From the NCBI RefSeq assembly GCF_030689645.1, contig NZ_JAUYFU010000048.1, positions 124,001 to 188,000 of the forward strand: a DNA stretch of 64,000 nt, in the 5' to 3' direction. The DNA is from Humidesulfovibrio sp. Lineage in GTDB: Bacteria; Desulfobacterota; Desulfovibrionia; Desulfovibrionales; Desulfovibrionaceae. The notes under the pieces were generated by a model that was given only the letters and a program-made list of their open reading frames with translations, ran no database searches and was not told where the DNA came from. A program made the translations under genes and the position numbers. Below, piece by piece: positions 269 to 5,383 of the stretch (position 1 is the first letter of the stretch; each line of letters starts with the position of its first letter).

Positions 269-1397
269 ATGCTGCAATTCGCCGATCTCAAGACCCAGGG
301 CCTGTCCCTGCAGGAACAGTTCGAAACGCTCTGGGGGCGTCTTTGACTCCGCGGAATCCCGCGAACGCCTTTTGGAAATCGAGGCCCAGCTCTCCAAACC
401 CGGTGCCTGGGACAAGCCTGAACTTCTGACCCCAGTCCTGCGCGAAAAGAGCGCCCTGGAATTCAAGCTCGGCATGTTCCGAGACCTGGAACAAGCCAAG
501 ACCAATGTTGACGAATGGCTGCTGCTCGCCCAGGAGGACCAGGGTCAGGACGCCCTGGAGGCCCTGAACGAAAACCTGGCCCTGCTGCAGAAGCGCCTTG
601 ACGACACGGAGCTGGCCACCCTGCTGAACGGGCCAGACGACAACACCCCTGCCATCCTTGAAATCCACCCTGGGGCAGGCGGGGTCGACGCCCAGGATTG
701 GGCGGAAATGCTCTTGCGCATGTACCTGCGCTGGGCCGAGTCACGCGGCTTCCAGGTGGTCGAGCTGGACCGCTTATATGGCGACGAGGCAGGCATCAAG
801 AGCGTCACACTTCAAATCACAGGTCCGTATGCCTACGGTCTGCTCAAGGGCGAGGCGGGCATCCACCGGCTCATCCGCATATCCCCCTTTGACGCCTCAG
901 GGCGACGGCACACGGCCTTTGCCTCTGTTGACGCATACCCGGACATTGATACCAACATCGAAATCGACGTCCGCGAAGAGGACTTGCGAATCGACGTTTT
1001 CCGTGCAAGCGGACCCGGCGGACAGCACGTGAACCGCACCAATTCCGCTGTGCGCATCACCCACCTGCCCTCCAATATCGTGGTGCAGTGCCAGAACGAA
1101 AAGTCACAGCTCAAGAACAAGATTCTTGCCATGAAGGTCCTGAAGGCGCGTCTCTACGAGCGTGAGATAAAGGAACTGGAGGCCAGCAAAAAGGCCGATT
1201 ACGCCAGTAAGGACGCCATCGCATTCGGCAGTCAAATCCGAACGTACACGCTCCAGCCCTACCGCCTGGTGAAGGACCACCGCTGCGGCCATGAGGACTC
1301 AAGTGTGGACGCCGTGCTGGACGGACGCCTTGATGAGTTCCTGCGCGCCACCCTGCTGCATGTGCACGGCGGGAAGAAGAGCGGCCATGGAGGATGA
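269..1397 (+). CDS. prfB: Peptide chain release factor 2, expressed by +1 programmed frameshift
   Basis: RF2 releases finished proteins at UGA and UAA codons. Translation starts at ATG 269 and meets an in-frame TGA at 344-346 after 25 codons. Skipping one base (T344) continues the frame at 345 and gives a 375-residue protein. With this shift the SPF codon-recognition tripeptide falls at residues 205-207 and the catalytic GGQ at 250-252, the same numbers I know for E. coli RF2, which supports both the start and the shift. The N-terminal helical domain, central SPF domain and GGQ domain are all present. The end overlaps the next gene by 11 bases. Confidence 0.96.
333..347 (+). promoter_or_regulatory. 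prfB +1 programmed frameshift site
   Basis: The slippery sequence is CTTTGAC: CTT at 341-343, stop TGA at 344-346. A GGGGG Shine-Dalgarno-like run at 333-337 lies three bases before CTT, the same spacing as in the E. coli prfB site. In the known mechanism, slow decoding of UGA when RF2 is scarce lets the ribosome slip forward by one base, so RF2 limits its own synthesis. Confidence 0.95.
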
Positions 1398-2098: not shown

Positions 2099-2920
2099 AT
2101 GGACGCCATCAACCCCGGCAAGACTGTCAGCCTCTGCATCATGAGCGGCAAAGGCGGCGTGGGCAAAACGAATCTATCCTTAAATCTTGGTTTTGCCCTG
2201 CGCGACATGGGCCACAAGCTGCTGCTCATGGACTGCGACCTGGGCCTGGCCAACCTGGACGTGCTTCTGGGGCTGGCGCCGGACAAGAACCTTCAGGACA
2301 TGCTGGCAGGATCTGCCCACTTCTCCGAGGTGGTGCAGACCGTTGAGCCTGGATTGGACATCCTGCCTGCCGCAAGCGGCGTGCCAGAAATGGTCGAGAT
2401 GGACCAGAACCAGCAGAGCGCGCTTTTTGACAAGCTCACCGACCTGATTTCGGCCTATGAATTCCTGATTCTGGACCTTGGCGCAGGCATCAGCGGCACG
2501 GTCTTGTCCCTTGCGCGCATGGCGCAAATGCGGGTGGTTCTTGTCACGCCCGAACCAACGTCCCTCACTGATGGCTACGCCATCATAAAGGTGCTGCACT
2601 CGCGCTACGGCGTTCGCGACTTCCTTGTTGTGGTAAACCAGGCCACAGCCCAGGAGGCCAAAGAGACATTCCAGCGCCTCAACCTGGCCTGCAAGAACTT
2701 CCTGGGCTTTGAACTGGTGAACCTAGGGCACGTCCGGTTGGACCGCACCATGACCGACGCCGTAATCCACCAGACCCCGCTGGCGCGACACGCCCCGAAC
2801 TGCGGCGCTGTGAAGGACATCACAGCTCTGGCTGGACGAGTGGCGAGGTATCGCGAGGACAATCTCGAAGCCATTTCCGGACGCAGGGCGCTTAAGCAAA
2901 TTCCTCTTCCCCCAACCTAA
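2099..2920 (+). CDS. MinD/ParA-type ATPase (FlhG-like)
   Basis: The 273-residue protein has a deviant Walker A motif SGKGGVGKT at residues 16-24, followed by the MDCDLGLANLDVLLG block typical of MinD, FlhG and YlxH proteins. Such ATPases dimerise on ATP and position machinery such as the division site, flagella or chemosensory arrays. No MinC, MinE or flagellar gene is adjacent, so the cargo cannot be read from context. The usual C-terminal amphipathic membrane-targeting helix of true MinD is not obvious, which favours an FlhG/YlxH-like or other orphan. ATG 2099 is chosen because the Walker motif then sits at the normal distance. The gene lies in a run with prfB and hup. Confidence 0.8.
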   Translation: MDAINPGKTVSLCIMSGKGGVGKTNLSLNLGFALRDMGHKLLLMDCDLGLANLDVLLGLAPDKNLQDMLAGSAHFSEVVQTVEPGLDILPAASGVPEMVEMDQNQQSALFDKLTDLISAYEFLILDLGAGISGTVLSLARMAQMRVVLVTPEPTSLTDGYAIIKVLHSRYGVRDFLVVVNQATAQEAKETFQRLNLACKNFLGFELVNLGHVRLDRTMTDAVIHQTPLARHAPNCGAVKDITALAGRVARYREDNLEAISGRRALKQIPLPPT

Positions 2921-3036
2921 CGAAACCCTTGACGGAATACCTACTTTTTCGGCATAGGAGGGATACATGTTTCTAAGTACCCCCCACAGAGCCTGTGGCA
3001 CGGTGCCACGAACTGCCCAACAATAGGGAGCGGTCC

Positions 3037-3312
3037 ATGAATAAAAGTGAACTTATCAAGGCACTGTCGGAAGAGAAAAAGCTGCACGTCGACGATGCTA
3101 CCAGGGTTGTCAGTGCTTTTTTCGACTCCATCAAGGATGCCCTTGTCGCTGGCGACAGGGTCGAAATCCGTGGCTTTGGAAGCTTCAAGGTCAAAGACTA
3201 CGAAGGTTACACAGGACGCAATCCCAAGACCGGAACTGTGGTCGAGGTTCACCCCAAGCGACTGCCTTTCTTCCGTCCGGGCAAAGAACTCAAGGAGTTC
3301 ATCAACGACTAA
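3037..3312 (+). CDS. HU/IHF-family DNA-binding protein
   Basis: This 91-residue protein is the normal size for the HU/IHF family of DNA-bending nucleoid proteins. It carries the family signature around GFGSFKVKDYEGYTGRNPKTG (residues about 47-67) and ends with the FRPGKELKEFI helix. The GRNPKTG loop is the DNA-inserting arm. HU and IHF subunits are hard to tell apart from sequence alone. The ATG follows a GGGAG at short distance. The stop codon TAA shares its last A with the ATG of the selenoprotein gene, so the two are probably coupled. A TTGACG at 2929 could be a -35 box, but no good -10 follows. Confidence 0.93.
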   Translation: MNKSELIKALSEEKKLHVDDATRVVSAFFDSIKDALVAGDRVEIRGFGSFKVKDYEGYTGRNPKTGTVVEVHPKRLPFFRPGKELKEFIND

Positions 3313-4193
3313 TGATCAGATCACTGTTTTTTCTCATCATATTAACTCTGGCTGCAGCAACGCAAGCCATAGCGGGTGGGCCTAGGCTCACCTTGCTTTT
3401 TTGTGCGAACACAGAAGGTGAAGTTCGCCCCTGCCCCACTTGAGGTGGCAAGACCTCGGGGGGACTGGCCCGGCGGGCCAGCGCGCAATCAACCTTCAAG
3501 AAAGGTGCAACCAGAGAGTCTCCCGTCTATTTTTTGGCCGGGGCCTTCGAATTTGTCCAGCCTGAGGCAGCAACTCCACCATCGCGCAAGCGTCTTGAGT
3601 TCATGGCAAAGGCCTTTGATCTGCTACACCACGACCTGCTCTTCGTGACCCCTTACGAACGCAGCGTTTTGGCAAAGGCGGGCGTAGCTCCCAGAGCTTC
3701 ATGGCGAGGCTCTGGGCGTTTGGAGCAACACATCCTGCAGACTGCTGGCGGTCCCAGAATCGCAGTGCTCCTGCTGCCGCCACTGCCCAAAGGCGCCAAG
3801 GACGTGCCGCAGAACCTTATTCATCAAGTAGAAAACGCTGTGCATGGTCTGCGAGGCACGGTGAAGCTTATTGTGGCCATGAGCCCCTGGGGGTATGCGC
3901 AAGAGCAGGAGCTTTTGAAGGCCAAGGGCCCCCTTCCAGACGTCCTGCTGGGGTCCGGGCCGGGCATCGGCCTTGTGGGCACGCTGGCCAACGGCAGCAA
4001 GACCGCCTGGGTGCGATCATTTGCTCAAGGCAAATCCGTGTTGCGCATTGAAGTGCTGGCCTGGCCTGATGAGATTTCCACTTTCAAATGGACGGAAGAG
4101 CAAAATATTCGTATGACCCTTTTCGGGCTCACTGATCAGTATCAGGAAAACCCGCAGTTGCTGACGCTTATGCAACATATGGGCACAGACTAG
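3312..4193 (+). CDS. Probable UshA-like selenoprotein with in-frame TGA (Sec44)
   Basis: From ATG 3312 the frame runs through a signal peptide (hydrophobic residues about 4-20, ending AIA-GG) to TGA at 3441-3443, then stays open in the same frame to 4193. Reading TGA as selenocysteine gives 293 residues. The join reads PCPT-U-GGKTSGGLARRA, and GGLARR is the hallmark I associate with UshA/5'-nucleotidase-like proteins, where a Cys-rich segment sits at this point. C41-P-T-U44 forms a CxxU redox-type motif. The protein is probably periplasmic. Its start overlaps the HU stop by one base, and dapA follows after 12 bases with a strong ribosome site. Its reaction is unknown. If TGA were a true stop, the downstream part would lack a signal peptide and a good start. 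Confidence 0.82.
3441..3481 (+). promoter_or_regulatory. Candidate bacterial SECIS element after Sec TGA
   Basis: Behind the TGA lies a perfect 7-bp stem, CTGGCCC (3465-3471) and GGGCCAG (3475-3481), with loop GGC. The loop starts 28 bases after the TGA, inside the 16-37 base window reported for bacterial SECIS elements. A G occupies the first two loop positions, as the SelB-binding consensus requires. This supports UGA recoding by SelB. Confidence 0.7.
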
Positions 4194-4205
4194 AAGGAGG
4201 ATTGA

Positions 4206-5084
4206 ATGAGTTTTCGCGGCGCGTTTACCGCACTGGTGACGCCGTTCAAAAACGGCGCAGTGGACGAGGAGGCTTACAGAGCCTTCATCGAATGGCAGAT
4301 CGAACAAGGCATCGACGGAGTCGTCCCTTGCGGCACTACCGGCGAAGCTGCCACCCTGTCTCATGCCGAGCAGGGTCAGGTCATCAAGATCTGCGTGGAC
4401 CAGGTAAAAGGTCGGGTGCCTGTCATCGCTGGCGCCGGGTCAAACAACACCCGTGAGGCCATTGAACTGGTAGCTTTGGCCAAACAGGCCGGTGCCGACG
4501 CCGTGCTGCTCATCACTCCGTACTACAACAAACCCACGCCCGATGGCCTGGTGGCCCACTTCAAGGCCATCGCCGCCGAAGCGCCCATGCCATCAATCGT
4601 GTACAATGTGCCCGGACGCACAGGCCTGAACATGCTTCCAAAGACCCTTGCGCGCATCGCAAAGGAAGTGCCTGAGGTCATCGGCGTCAAAGAGGCCACG
4701 GGCGACATCAAGCAAGGCACTGAAGTCATTGAGGCCATGGGACGGGACTTCATCGTCCTGTCCGGCGACGACTTCACCGTGCTGCCGCTTTTGGCTGCCG
4801 GCGGCCATGGCACCATCTCCGTCACATCAAACGTCATGCCGGGAAAAATGTCGGGCATGATCGCGGCGTTCAACAAACGCGACACGGCTCGCGCCCAGGC
4901 CTTGAACCTGGAGATGATGCCGGTGAACCGGGCCATGTTCCTTGAAACCAACCCGATTCCGGTCAAGACCGCCCTCTCGCTCATGGGCAAGATGAACCTG
5001 GAGTTCCGCTTGCCCCTGGTTCCCCTTGAACCGTGCCACCTGGATCAGCTCAAAAAGATCCTGGCTGAAAGCGGCCTGATTTAA
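4206..5084 (+). CDS. dapA: 4-hydroxy-tetrahydrodipicolinate synthase
   Basis: DapA condenses pyruvate with aspartate semialdehyde, the first committed step of lysine and diaminopimelate synthesis. The 292 residues match the family length. The Schiff-base lysine is K162 in GVKEATGD, the catalytic tyrosine is Y133 in IVYNVPGRTG, and T44/T45 lie in CGTTGEA, all at the positions of the E. coli enzyme. A strong AAGGAGG lies just before the ATG. It is the last gene of the plus-strand group and is closed by a terminator. The next pathway enzyme here, dapB, is about 18 kb away. Confidence 0.97.
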   Translation: MSFRGAFTALVTPFKNGAVDEEAYRAFIEWQIEQGIDGVVPCGTTGEAATLSHAEQGQVIKICVDQVKGRVPVIAGAGSNNTREAIELVALAKQAGADAVLLITPYYNKPTPDGLVAHFKAIAAEAPMPSIVYNVPGRTGLNMLPKTLARIAKEVPEVIGVKEATGDIKQGTEVIEAMGRDFIVLSGDDFTVLPLLAAGGHGTISVTSNVMPGKMSGMIAAFNKRDTARAQALNLEMMPVNRAMFLETNPIPVKTALSLMGKMNLEFRLPLVPLEPCHLDQLKKILAESGLI

Positions 5085-5119
5085 ATGTAGGGCGAAACAA
5101 AGCCCCCCGAACACTCGAA

Positions 5120-5150
5120 CGCCCTGGCCGCAAGACCAGGGCGTTTTTAT
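5120..5150 (+). terminator. Rho-independent terminator of dapA
   Basis: An 8-bp stem CGCCCTGG (5120-5127) and CCAGGGCG (5136-5143) with an 8-base loop is followed by TTTTTAT. It sits 35 bases after the dapA stop and touches the end of the convergent gene. Confidence 0.9.
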
Positions 5151-5383
5151 TACTGTGGCGGGCAGGAACAGGTAGCAAAAAGGCGTTGGACCACGGGCAG
5201 CATGAGGAACATGACCGGATAGGCCACGGCCCAGGAAATGAGCCAGGGCAAGGGCCATGTGTCCCAGAATGCGACTAAGCCCACGGCGCGGAGAGTTTCG
5301 ATGGCCGAGACGAGGCACGTCATACAGCAACTGACAATAAGCGGCACAATCATCCGTGCATACTTCTCGTGCAGACGTTTCAT
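5150..5383 (-). CDS. DUF2798-like small membrane protein
   Basis: This 77-residue protein has two hydrophobic segments (about residues 11-36 and 45-68) and a pattern resembling DUF2798 proteins: a KYAR opening, a Ser-rich first helix, a W-x-x-SW-A-x-x-YP turn and a closing LP-V-x-R-L. Such proteins are short two-helix inner-membrane proteins of unknown function. The C-terminal CSC is notable. It ends inside the dapA terminator and is convergent with dapA. It lies downstream of ppaC but behind that gene's terminator, so it is probably transcribed separately. Confidence 0.65.
   Translation of the reverse strand: MKRLHEKYARMIVPLIVSCCMTCLVSAIETLRAVGLVAFWDTWPLPWLISWAVAYPVMFLMLPVVQRLFATCSCPPQ

What the first reader, a model, noticed from the sequence alone, without database searches (positions are those of the whole stretch)
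3312..4193. Probable UshA-like selenoprotein hidden by an in-frame TGA
The frame from ATG 3312 (signal peptide, CANTEGEVRPCPT) hits TGA 3441 and stays open in the same frame for 750 more bases, without any other stop. The residues just after TGA, GGKTSGGLARRA, continue a recognisable UshA-like motif, so the stop sits inside a conserved site. A Cys at the CxxU position supports Sec rather than nonsense mutation. A standard caller would give either a 43-residue peptide or a truncated gene from about 3534. Desulfovibrio-type bacteria commonly have Sec machinery.
Basis: partly seen in the sequence, partly recalled or inferred. Interest (0 to 1): 0.85.

Follow-up and report, generated by a model that had tools for sequence, protein, structure and literature searches.

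The report
UshA-like selenoprotein beside HU/IHF gene
The stop codon inside this gene is almost certainly read as selenocysteine: the gene belongs to a named family of probably exported selenium proteins that look like a phosphatase stripped of its metal site, so the finding is real but the family is already listed.

Summary
The frame runs from ATG 3312 to TAG 4193 with one in-frame TGA at 3441-3443 (residue 44), after C41-P-T. Read through, the product is a full-length member of NCBIfam NF049981 'UshA-like (seleno)protein family 2' (295 bits, cut-off 140), listed in a 2026 review. For selenocysteine (Sec): residue 44 is TGA in 96 and TGC (Cys) in 28 of 124 distinct sequences; dN/dS after the TGA is 0.13-0.25 against five congeners; a SECIS hairpin (3465-3481) keeps its core pairs in 73 of 75 distinct Sec but 7 of 25 Cys sequences; Cys-only genomes are 10 of 19 without selA, 4 of 157 with it; the genome has tRNA-Sec, selB and selD. 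Against: selA in this assembly has an in-frame TAG where two congeners read Leu. The fold resembles the N-terminal metallophosphatase domain of 5'-nucleotidases, but all six metal-ligand positions are replaced: probably an exported selenol/thiol redox protein, not a phosphatase. Its ATG overlaps an HU/IHF-family gene, a neighbourhood kept in 101 of 124. New member of a known kind; substrate unknown.

The parts
3312..4193 (+). UshA-like selenoprotein family 2 gene, 293 aa with TGA read as Sec
   Evidence: NF049981 at 3.9e-88, 295.3 bits; purifying selection on both sides of the TGA
3312..3377 (+). probable signal peptide, residues 1-22 (read by eye; no signal-peptide program was run)
   Evidence: hydrophobic N-terminus in the translation; helix 2-18 in the model; a hydrophobic stretch precedes the domain in 110 of 124
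3432..3443 (+). C41-P-T-U44 (CxxU) motif; TGA 3441-3443 = Sec44
   Evidence: column 44 is TGA in 96 and TGC in 28 of 124 distinct sequences; the partner Cys is present in 122 of 124
3465..3481 (+). SECIS hairpin, 7 bp stem with GGC loop, formed by the codons of LARRA and two bases of the next codon
   Evidence: -12.1 kcal/mol, z -2.76; five core pairs intact in 73 of 75 distinct Sec sequences against 7 of 25 Cys ones; helix probability 0.80 against 0.16 in synonymous shuffles
3459..3476 (+). codons of GGLARR, a motif shared with 5'-nucleotidases
   Evidence: profile alignment to PDB 5h7w; R54 and R55 are Arg in 58 of 58
3037..3312 (+). HU/IHF-family DNA-binding protein gene; its TAA overlaps the ATG of the selenoprotein gene (TAATG)
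   Evidence: PF00216 at 4.7e-32; nearest NCBIfam model is IHF beta, 100 bits, below its cut-off of 115; a homologue lies just upstream in 101 of 124
4206..5084 (+). dapA, 12 bases downstream
   Evidence: TIGR00674 at 348 bits, cut-off 206; a homologue was found downstream on the same strand in 64 of 124 loci, some of which are cut short

Best explanation
A genuine selenoprotein gene. Ribosomes, probably entering by coupled translation from the overlapping HU/IHF-family gene, meet UGA at codon 44; a SECIS hairpin 28 nt downstream, formed by the codons of the conserved LARRA, recruits SelB with Sec-tRNA, and Sec is inserted. The product is probably exported and folds as the N-terminal calcineurin-like domain of UshA/CD73/SoxB, without their C-terminal domain. 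All six di-metal ligand positions are replaced, so it is probably not a phosphatase; C41 and U44, in the loop after the first strand where the metal site used to be, would form a selenol/thiol redox pair. Shown: open frame, purifying selection, Sec/Cys exchange, TGA-linked hairpin, association with selA, family and fold match. Inferred: Sec insertion in this strain, coupling, export, redox chemistry. The substrate is unknown.
For: NF049981 at 295.3 bits against a cut-off of 140. Column 44: TGA in 96, TGC in 28 of 124 distinct sequences, the window's own included. dN/dS after the TGA 0.13-0.25 against five congeners. SECIS: five core pairs in 73 of 75 distinct Sec but 7 of 25 Cys sequences; mean helix probability 0.798 against 0.163 in synonymous shuffles, Cys forms 0.25 against 0.10; CGG at the two Arg codons in 84 and 81 of 96 Sec forms against 21% of Arg codons elsewhere in those genes. 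Machinery: tRNA-Sec 84.3 bits, named tRNA-SeC with anticodon TCA by ARAGORN; selB 374 bits, cut-off 242; selD 318 bits, cut-off 125, itself with an in-frame TGA; selA 596 bits, cut-off 268. Among 176 family-bearing class genomes, with selA: 153 TGA form, 4 Cys only; without: 9 TGA form, 10 Cys only (Fisher p 1.2e-8). Fold: CD73 Z 11.2, SoxB Z 11.1, E. coli UshA Z 10.5. Ligand positions replaced.
Against: selA of this assembly has an in-frame TAG at L034:2089-2091; if real, this strain makes no Sec. Nine TGA-form genomes show no selA (drafts, 79-96% complete), and four genomes with selA have Cys only. In 18 of 96 Sec forms the predicted helix probability is under 0.5. The structure model is weak: mean pLDDT 58.8, residues 31-50 (with the CxxU) under 50; Mre11 nucleases score Z 10.4 as well, so the Z-scores show the superfamily and do not single out UshA. 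Ligand mapping rests on about 15% identity, and Asn or Glu at the first two positions could in principle still bind a metal. No expression or mass-spectrometry data.
Confidence: 0.88

Rival explanations
1. The TGA is a recent nonsense mutation or sequencing error in a Cys-containing gene, so this is a pseudogene.
For: Relatives with Cys at this position exist: 28 of 124. selA of the same assembly also carries an in-frame stop.
Against: The same codon is TGA in 96 of 124 distinct sequences and in further members. The codons after the TGA are under purifying selection like those before it.
Confidence: 0.02
2. The gene is a true selenoprotein gene of the lineage but is silent in this strain, because selA is broken here (in-frame TAG) and UGA acts only as a stop.
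For: TAG at L034:2089-2091 in selA where congeners G001 and G006 have CTG, Leu.
Against: The rest of selA matches the model over all 455 positions. selB, tRNA-Sec and selD (with its own in-frame TGA) are kept and the SECIS here is intact, so any loss would be very recent. The assembly is in 111 contigs and a base error is possible.
Confidence: 0.12
3. The protein is still a metallophosphatase or nucleotidase like UshA and the Sec is an accessory or structural residue.
For: Fold and GGLARR motif shared with 5'-nucleotidases.
Against: At the positions aligned with the six ligands of CD73 (ligand identity recalled) the ligand residue is found in 4 (D, 33), 3 (H, 35), 3 (D, 79), 0 (N, 114), 2 (H, 192) and 0 (H, 216) of 58 members. 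No second UshA domain: 293 aa and no Pfam family for this protein.
Confidence: 0.08
4. UGA is decoded as another residue, such as Cys or Trp, by an unusual tRNA or by near-cognate read-through.
For: Cys occurs naturally at the position.
Against: The hairpin is tied to the TGA form, and Cys-only genomes are concentrated among those without selA; Sec decoding explains both.
Confidence: 0.02

Closest known systems
NCBIfam NF049981, UshA-like (seleno)protein family 2
   Same: Full-length match above the curated cut-off; CxxU as listed for the family in PMC13188914 (passage)
   Different: Nothing found that removes it from the family; this is a member
NCBIfam NF041198, UshA_like_PCGU (COG0737 UshA-like selenoprotein of the GOS survey, CxU)
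   Same: 29 bits over residues 7-99; a U-containing motif near the N-terminus
   Different: Far below the 275-bit cut-off; model of 519 positions against 293 aa; motif CxU (passages) against CxxU
5'-nucleotidases UshA and CD73
   Same: N-terminal domain fold (Z 10.5 and 11.2), GGxARRA motif
   Different: Metal-ligand positions replaced, no C-terminal domain, a CxxU loop after the first strand
SoxB thiosulfohydrolase
   Same: Fold (Z 11.1); 1 of 58 members matches TIGR04486 at 5.6e-6
   Different: SoxB is a two-domain di-manganese enzyme (recalled); ligand positions replaced here, and the window protein itself does not match TIGR04486

Membership tests
NF049981 UshA-like (seleno)protein family 2 | Whole-protein score above 140 bits over the 262-position model | tested here: met
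   295.3 bits, model 1-262
NF049981 UshA-like (seleno)protein family 2 | CxxU/CxxC motif | tested here: met
   C41-P-T-U44; motif given as CxxU in PMC13188914 (passage)
NF041198 UshA_like_PCGU | Score above 275 bits over 519 positions | tested here: not met
   29 bits, positions 3-94 only
Bacterial selenoprotein gene | bSECIS: loop of 3-9 nt, stem of 4-16 bp, G in the first two loop positions, 16-37 nt from UGA, energy -7.5 kcal/mol or lower (constraints from a passage of PMC13188914) | tested here: met
   loop GGC, 7 bp stem, -12.1 kcal/mol; 28 nt between UGA and loop, counted from the coordinates
Bacterial selenoprotein gene | Genome encodes tRNA-Sec, SelB and SelD | tested here: met
   (the Rfam search alone also rings in the 14 control genomes, over its cut-off in 5; ARAGORN names this one tRNA-SeC)
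Bacterial selenoprotein gene | Genome encodes an intact SelA | tested here: inconclusive
   full-length match at 596 bits but one in-frame TAG
Bacterial selenoprotein gene | Sec shown in the protein | not testable with these tools
   needs mass spectrometry or selenium labelling
UshA/CD73 5'-nucleotidase | N-terminal metallophosphatase fold | tested here: met
   CD73 Z 11.2, rmsd 4.2 over 210 residues; UshA Z 10.5, 4.2 over 221; Mre11 Z 10.4, so the superfamily rather than the family is shown; weak model
UshA/CD73 5'-nucleotidase | Six conserved di-metal ligands | tested here: not met
   all six positions replaced in this protein; the ligand residue is kept at a position in at most 4 of 58 members (mapping, ligand identity recalled)
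UshA/CD73 5'-nucleotidase | C-terminal nucleotide-binding domain | tested here: not met
   293 aa; no Pfam family; the matched part of CD73 (about 520 residues) ends near its residue 313
SoxB | NCBIfam TIGR04486 match | tested here: not met
   no match for the window protein at 10 or less; 1 of 58 members matches at 0.001 or less

The most novel reading that the evidence does not exclude
A metallophosphatase fold that has lost its whole metal site and become an exported selenol oxidoreductase, perhaps acting like a metal-free counterpart of SoxB on a sulfur- or selenium-loaded cysteine of a partner protein, and kept in a translationally coupled unit with an HU/IHF-family nucleoid protein across a class of sulfate reducers.
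Probability: 0.2. Interest if true: 0.65.

Novelty: new member of a known kind. Interest (0 to 1): 0.42.

Why it matters
A standard gene caller cuts this protein at residue 43 or loses its first quarter. The family is common in this class of bacteria (177 of 328 genomes), and I found no assigned function for it in the papers searched. The exchange of Sec and Cys, part of it in genomes where no selA is found, plus one genus with Cys and Sec copies side by side, makes it a good natural test of what Sec adds. If the metal-free reading holds, it is a phosphatase fold turned into a redox protein.

Tried and rejected
Pseudogene, sequencing error and non-Sec decoding were considered and rejected (see the rivals). 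Free energy of the whole 51 nt after the codon separates Sec from Cys forms only weakly (mean z -0.89 for 96, -0.32 for 28, Mann-Whitney p 0.013), and for the window's 60-mer 19 of 200 shuffles fold as well; the specific hairpin is the better test. Rfam on 2500-5200 gave one hit, an snoRNA at E 0.053 and 19 bits, far below its gathering score of 39. A terminator-like stem at 3374-3393 lies inside the gene, and such hits are below chance here (1 found, 2.3 expected); no promoter-like site was found at 2900-4300. Pfam gave no family for the window protein and only scattered matches, none in more than 5 of 58 members. Foldseek alone gave one match at 0.001 or less, a Thermus hypothetical protein; realignment of its top 1000 chains put 5'-nucleotidases and SoxB first. 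A scan of the whole window for TGA codons flanked by Cys with long open frames gave 10 candidates, this one included; the other nine were judged by eye to be chance frames and not followed up.

Papers: listings and passages only were seen, no whole text. PMC13188914 (passages), PMC9312934 (passage), PMC2398784 (passages), PMC1794560 (passages), PMC12013277 (passage). Searches: 'UshA-like' with 'selenoprotein', three papers; 'NF049981', one; 'selenoprotein', 'Desulfovibrio', 'UshA', one unrelated review; 'selenoprotein' with 'SoxB', three, unrelated by their titles; 'selenocysteine', 'nucleotidase', 'selenoprotein families', 'sulfate-reducing', none; two wider searches seen as listings only. 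In this open-access library I saw no functional study of family 2; the 2007 Olavius algarvensis paper is not held.

Full report
What is there. The frame from ATG 3312 to TAG 4193 is open but for TGA 3441-3443, residue 44, directly after C41-P-T. Table 11 leaves in this frame only a 43-aa ORF and a 219-aa TTG ORF from 3534. Read through, the 293-aa product matches NCBIfam NF049981, UshA-like (seleno)protein family 2, at 3.9e-88 and 295.3 bits against a cut-off of 140, over the whole model; NF041198 (UshA_like_PCGU) is a weak second at 29 bits against a cut-off of 275. The window lies in a 3.19 Mb draft genome of 111 contigs. Public contigs that encode near relatives are labelled Humidesulfovibrio, Desulfovibrio and the like, and contig lengths tie some of them to genomes of the window's genus.

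Relatives. In the genus, 13 of 15 genomes (this one included) have the gene, each with one in-frame TGA, and four also have a second, 31-32% identical copy with a TGA. In the class, 177 of 328 genomes match the family, 173 above the cut-off. From loci fetched up to I aligned 128 distinct stretches, the window's own included; column 44 read U 97, C 29, V 1, gap 1. Four of these are broken fragments (three of L144, one of L145) and were dropped; of the 124 left, 96 have TGA and 28 TGC. The partner Cys is present in 122 of 124; the two exceptions, L093 and L142, keep the TGA. The 22 further genomes have each a best match with one TGA. In 394 genomes drawn from the phylum, 153 match, but only 6 pass the cut-off, and all six are of the window's own family; of the 14 sub-threshold loci fetched (L185-L198), 11 show a TGA at the same place before GG[LIM]xRR and 3 were not resolved by the pattern used.

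Translation past the TGA. Against five congeners (L010-L014) the 247-249 codons after the TGA have pS 0.53-0.70 and pN 0.13-0.24, dN/dS 0.13-0.25; the 43 codons before it are similar. The region is thus translated in this frame.

SECIS. The codons of LARRA and two bases of the next form a hairpin at 3465-3481, CUGGCCC-GGC-GGGCCAG, -12.1 kcal/mol. It meets the constraints given for bacteria in PMC13188914 (passage), including the loop pattern N1-G-[G/U]-N-N2 (C-GGC-G here) and 16-37 nt from UGA (28 here). Among Sec forms the mean helix probability is 0.798 against 0.163 when synonymous codons are shuffled by each gene's usage; observed exceeds control in 84 of 96. Cys forms have 0.25 against 0.10, with 9 of 28 above control. 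CGG is used at the two Arg codons in 84 and 81 of 96 Sec forms, against 21% of other Arg codons in those genes. The five core pairs hold in 73 of 75 distinct Sec sequences, with changes on both sides at two pairs, but in 7 of 25 Cys ones. The helix is thus tied to the TGA rather than to the protein sequence. In 18 of 96 Sec forms the predicted probability is under 0.5.

Sec machinery. tRNA-Sec scores 84.3 bits and ARAGORN names it tRNA-SeC, anticodon TCA; selB 374 bits; selD 318 bits with an in-frame TGA of its own; selA 596 bits over all 455 positions. But selA has an in-frame TAG at L034:2089-2091 where congeners G001 and G006 have Leu. It may be an assembly error or a very recent mutation; I cannot tell.

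Co-distribution. Of the 177 family-bearing class genomes, 158 show a selA match and 19 do not. Taking the form of each and setting aside G149 (a match at 7.7e-4), those with selA have a TGA form in 153 and Cys only in 4 (G075, G076, G077, and G187, whose selA match is partial); those without have a TGA form in 9 and Cys only in 10; Fisher p 1.2e-8. 'Cys only' means no stop inside; the Cys itself was seen by alignment for each of the 14. The 153 include three fragmentary genes (G065, G208, G265), and for many TGA rows the place of the TGA was not checked beyond the alignments. Genomes are related, so the p value overstates the evidence. The 9 exceptions are drafts of 79-96% completeness and the 10 Cys-only ones of 74-97%, so some missing selA may be gaps in assemblies. 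On a tree of 99 sequences the label needs at least 6 changes, 2 of them forced by well-supported branches. In all 13 genomes of one genus (g38) a Cys copy and a Sec copy occur side by side; the two sets are neighbouring clades on the tree, and the Cys copy is the one next to the HU/IHF-family gene.

Neighbours. The ATG overlaps the TAA of an HU/IHF-family gene (PF00216 at 4.7e-32; nearest NCBIfam model IHF beta, below its cut-off), and dapA follows 12 bases downstream. A homologue of that DNA-binding protein lies within 700 nt upstream on the same strand in 101 of 124 (74 of 96 Sec, 27 of 28 Cys), within 23 nt or overlapping in 84 of these; of the 23 others, 12 are second tandem copies, 6 belong to the second-copy clade and 5 are elsewhere or lack room. 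Most Sec and Cys forms are thus the same gene in the same place. Why it travels with a nucleoid protein is not explained.

Fold and mechanism. A profile of 58 members finds snake-venom 5'-nucleotidase first among solved structures (7.6e-5), SoxB far weaker (0.43). AlphaFold2 on 9 sequences gives a weak model (pLDDT 58.8, pTM 0.61; residues 31-50 under 50). Its best structural matches are CD73 (Z 11.2, rmsd 4.2 over 210), SoxB (Z 11.1) and E. coli UshA (Z 10.5), but Mre11 scores up to Z 10.4, so Z alone shows the superfamily; the sequence profile is what points to 5'-nucleotidases. Through the printed alignment and a by-eye match of the first strand, with ligand identities of CD73 recalled, the six metal ligands fall on N33, E35, F79 (or A78), P114, P192 and G216; in 58 members the ligand residue is found in 4, 3, 3 (0 at 78), 0, 2 and 0. 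Other residues are nearly fixed instead: R54, R55 and G216 (58 of 58), E80 and G194 (56), S191 and W193 (55). The simplest reading is a phosphatase fold without its metals and with a redox pair C41/U44 in the loop after the first strand. Export is inferred from the hydrophobic N-terminus (110 of 124). The substrate is unknown.

Novelty. NF049981 is listed, with CxxU and the mark 'GenBank annotated', in a 2026 review (passage); no functional study of it turned up in the searches made. The finding is a correct detection of a member of a recently named family.

Noticed in passing
L034:2089-2091 (G000:C60, same genome): In-frame TAG in an otherwise full-length selA; congeners G001 and G006 have Leu there.
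   Followed up: partly
window 269-1397: Release factor 2 gene (TIGR00020, 458 bits over residues from 372 on) split in two frames, with GGGGGC at 333-338 and CTTTGAC at 341-347: looks like the classic programmed +1 frameshift of prfB (motif recalled).
   Followed up: partly
L076-L089 (genus g38): The 13 genomes of this genus carry a Cys copy and a Sec copy of the gene side by side, Cys copy first.
   Followed up: partly
L093 and L142: Two Sec forms without the CxxU partner Cys (PLRAU and PEAGU), so the partner is not always kept.
   Followed up: partly
L022-L025, L096, L105: A second Sec-containing clade of the family without the HU/IHF-family neighbour; the four congener copies are 31-32% identical to the window protein.
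   Followed up: no
window 3037-3312 and relatives: HU/IHF-family gene overlapping or directly upstream of the selenoprotein gene in 101 of 124; no functional link known to me.
   Followed up: partly
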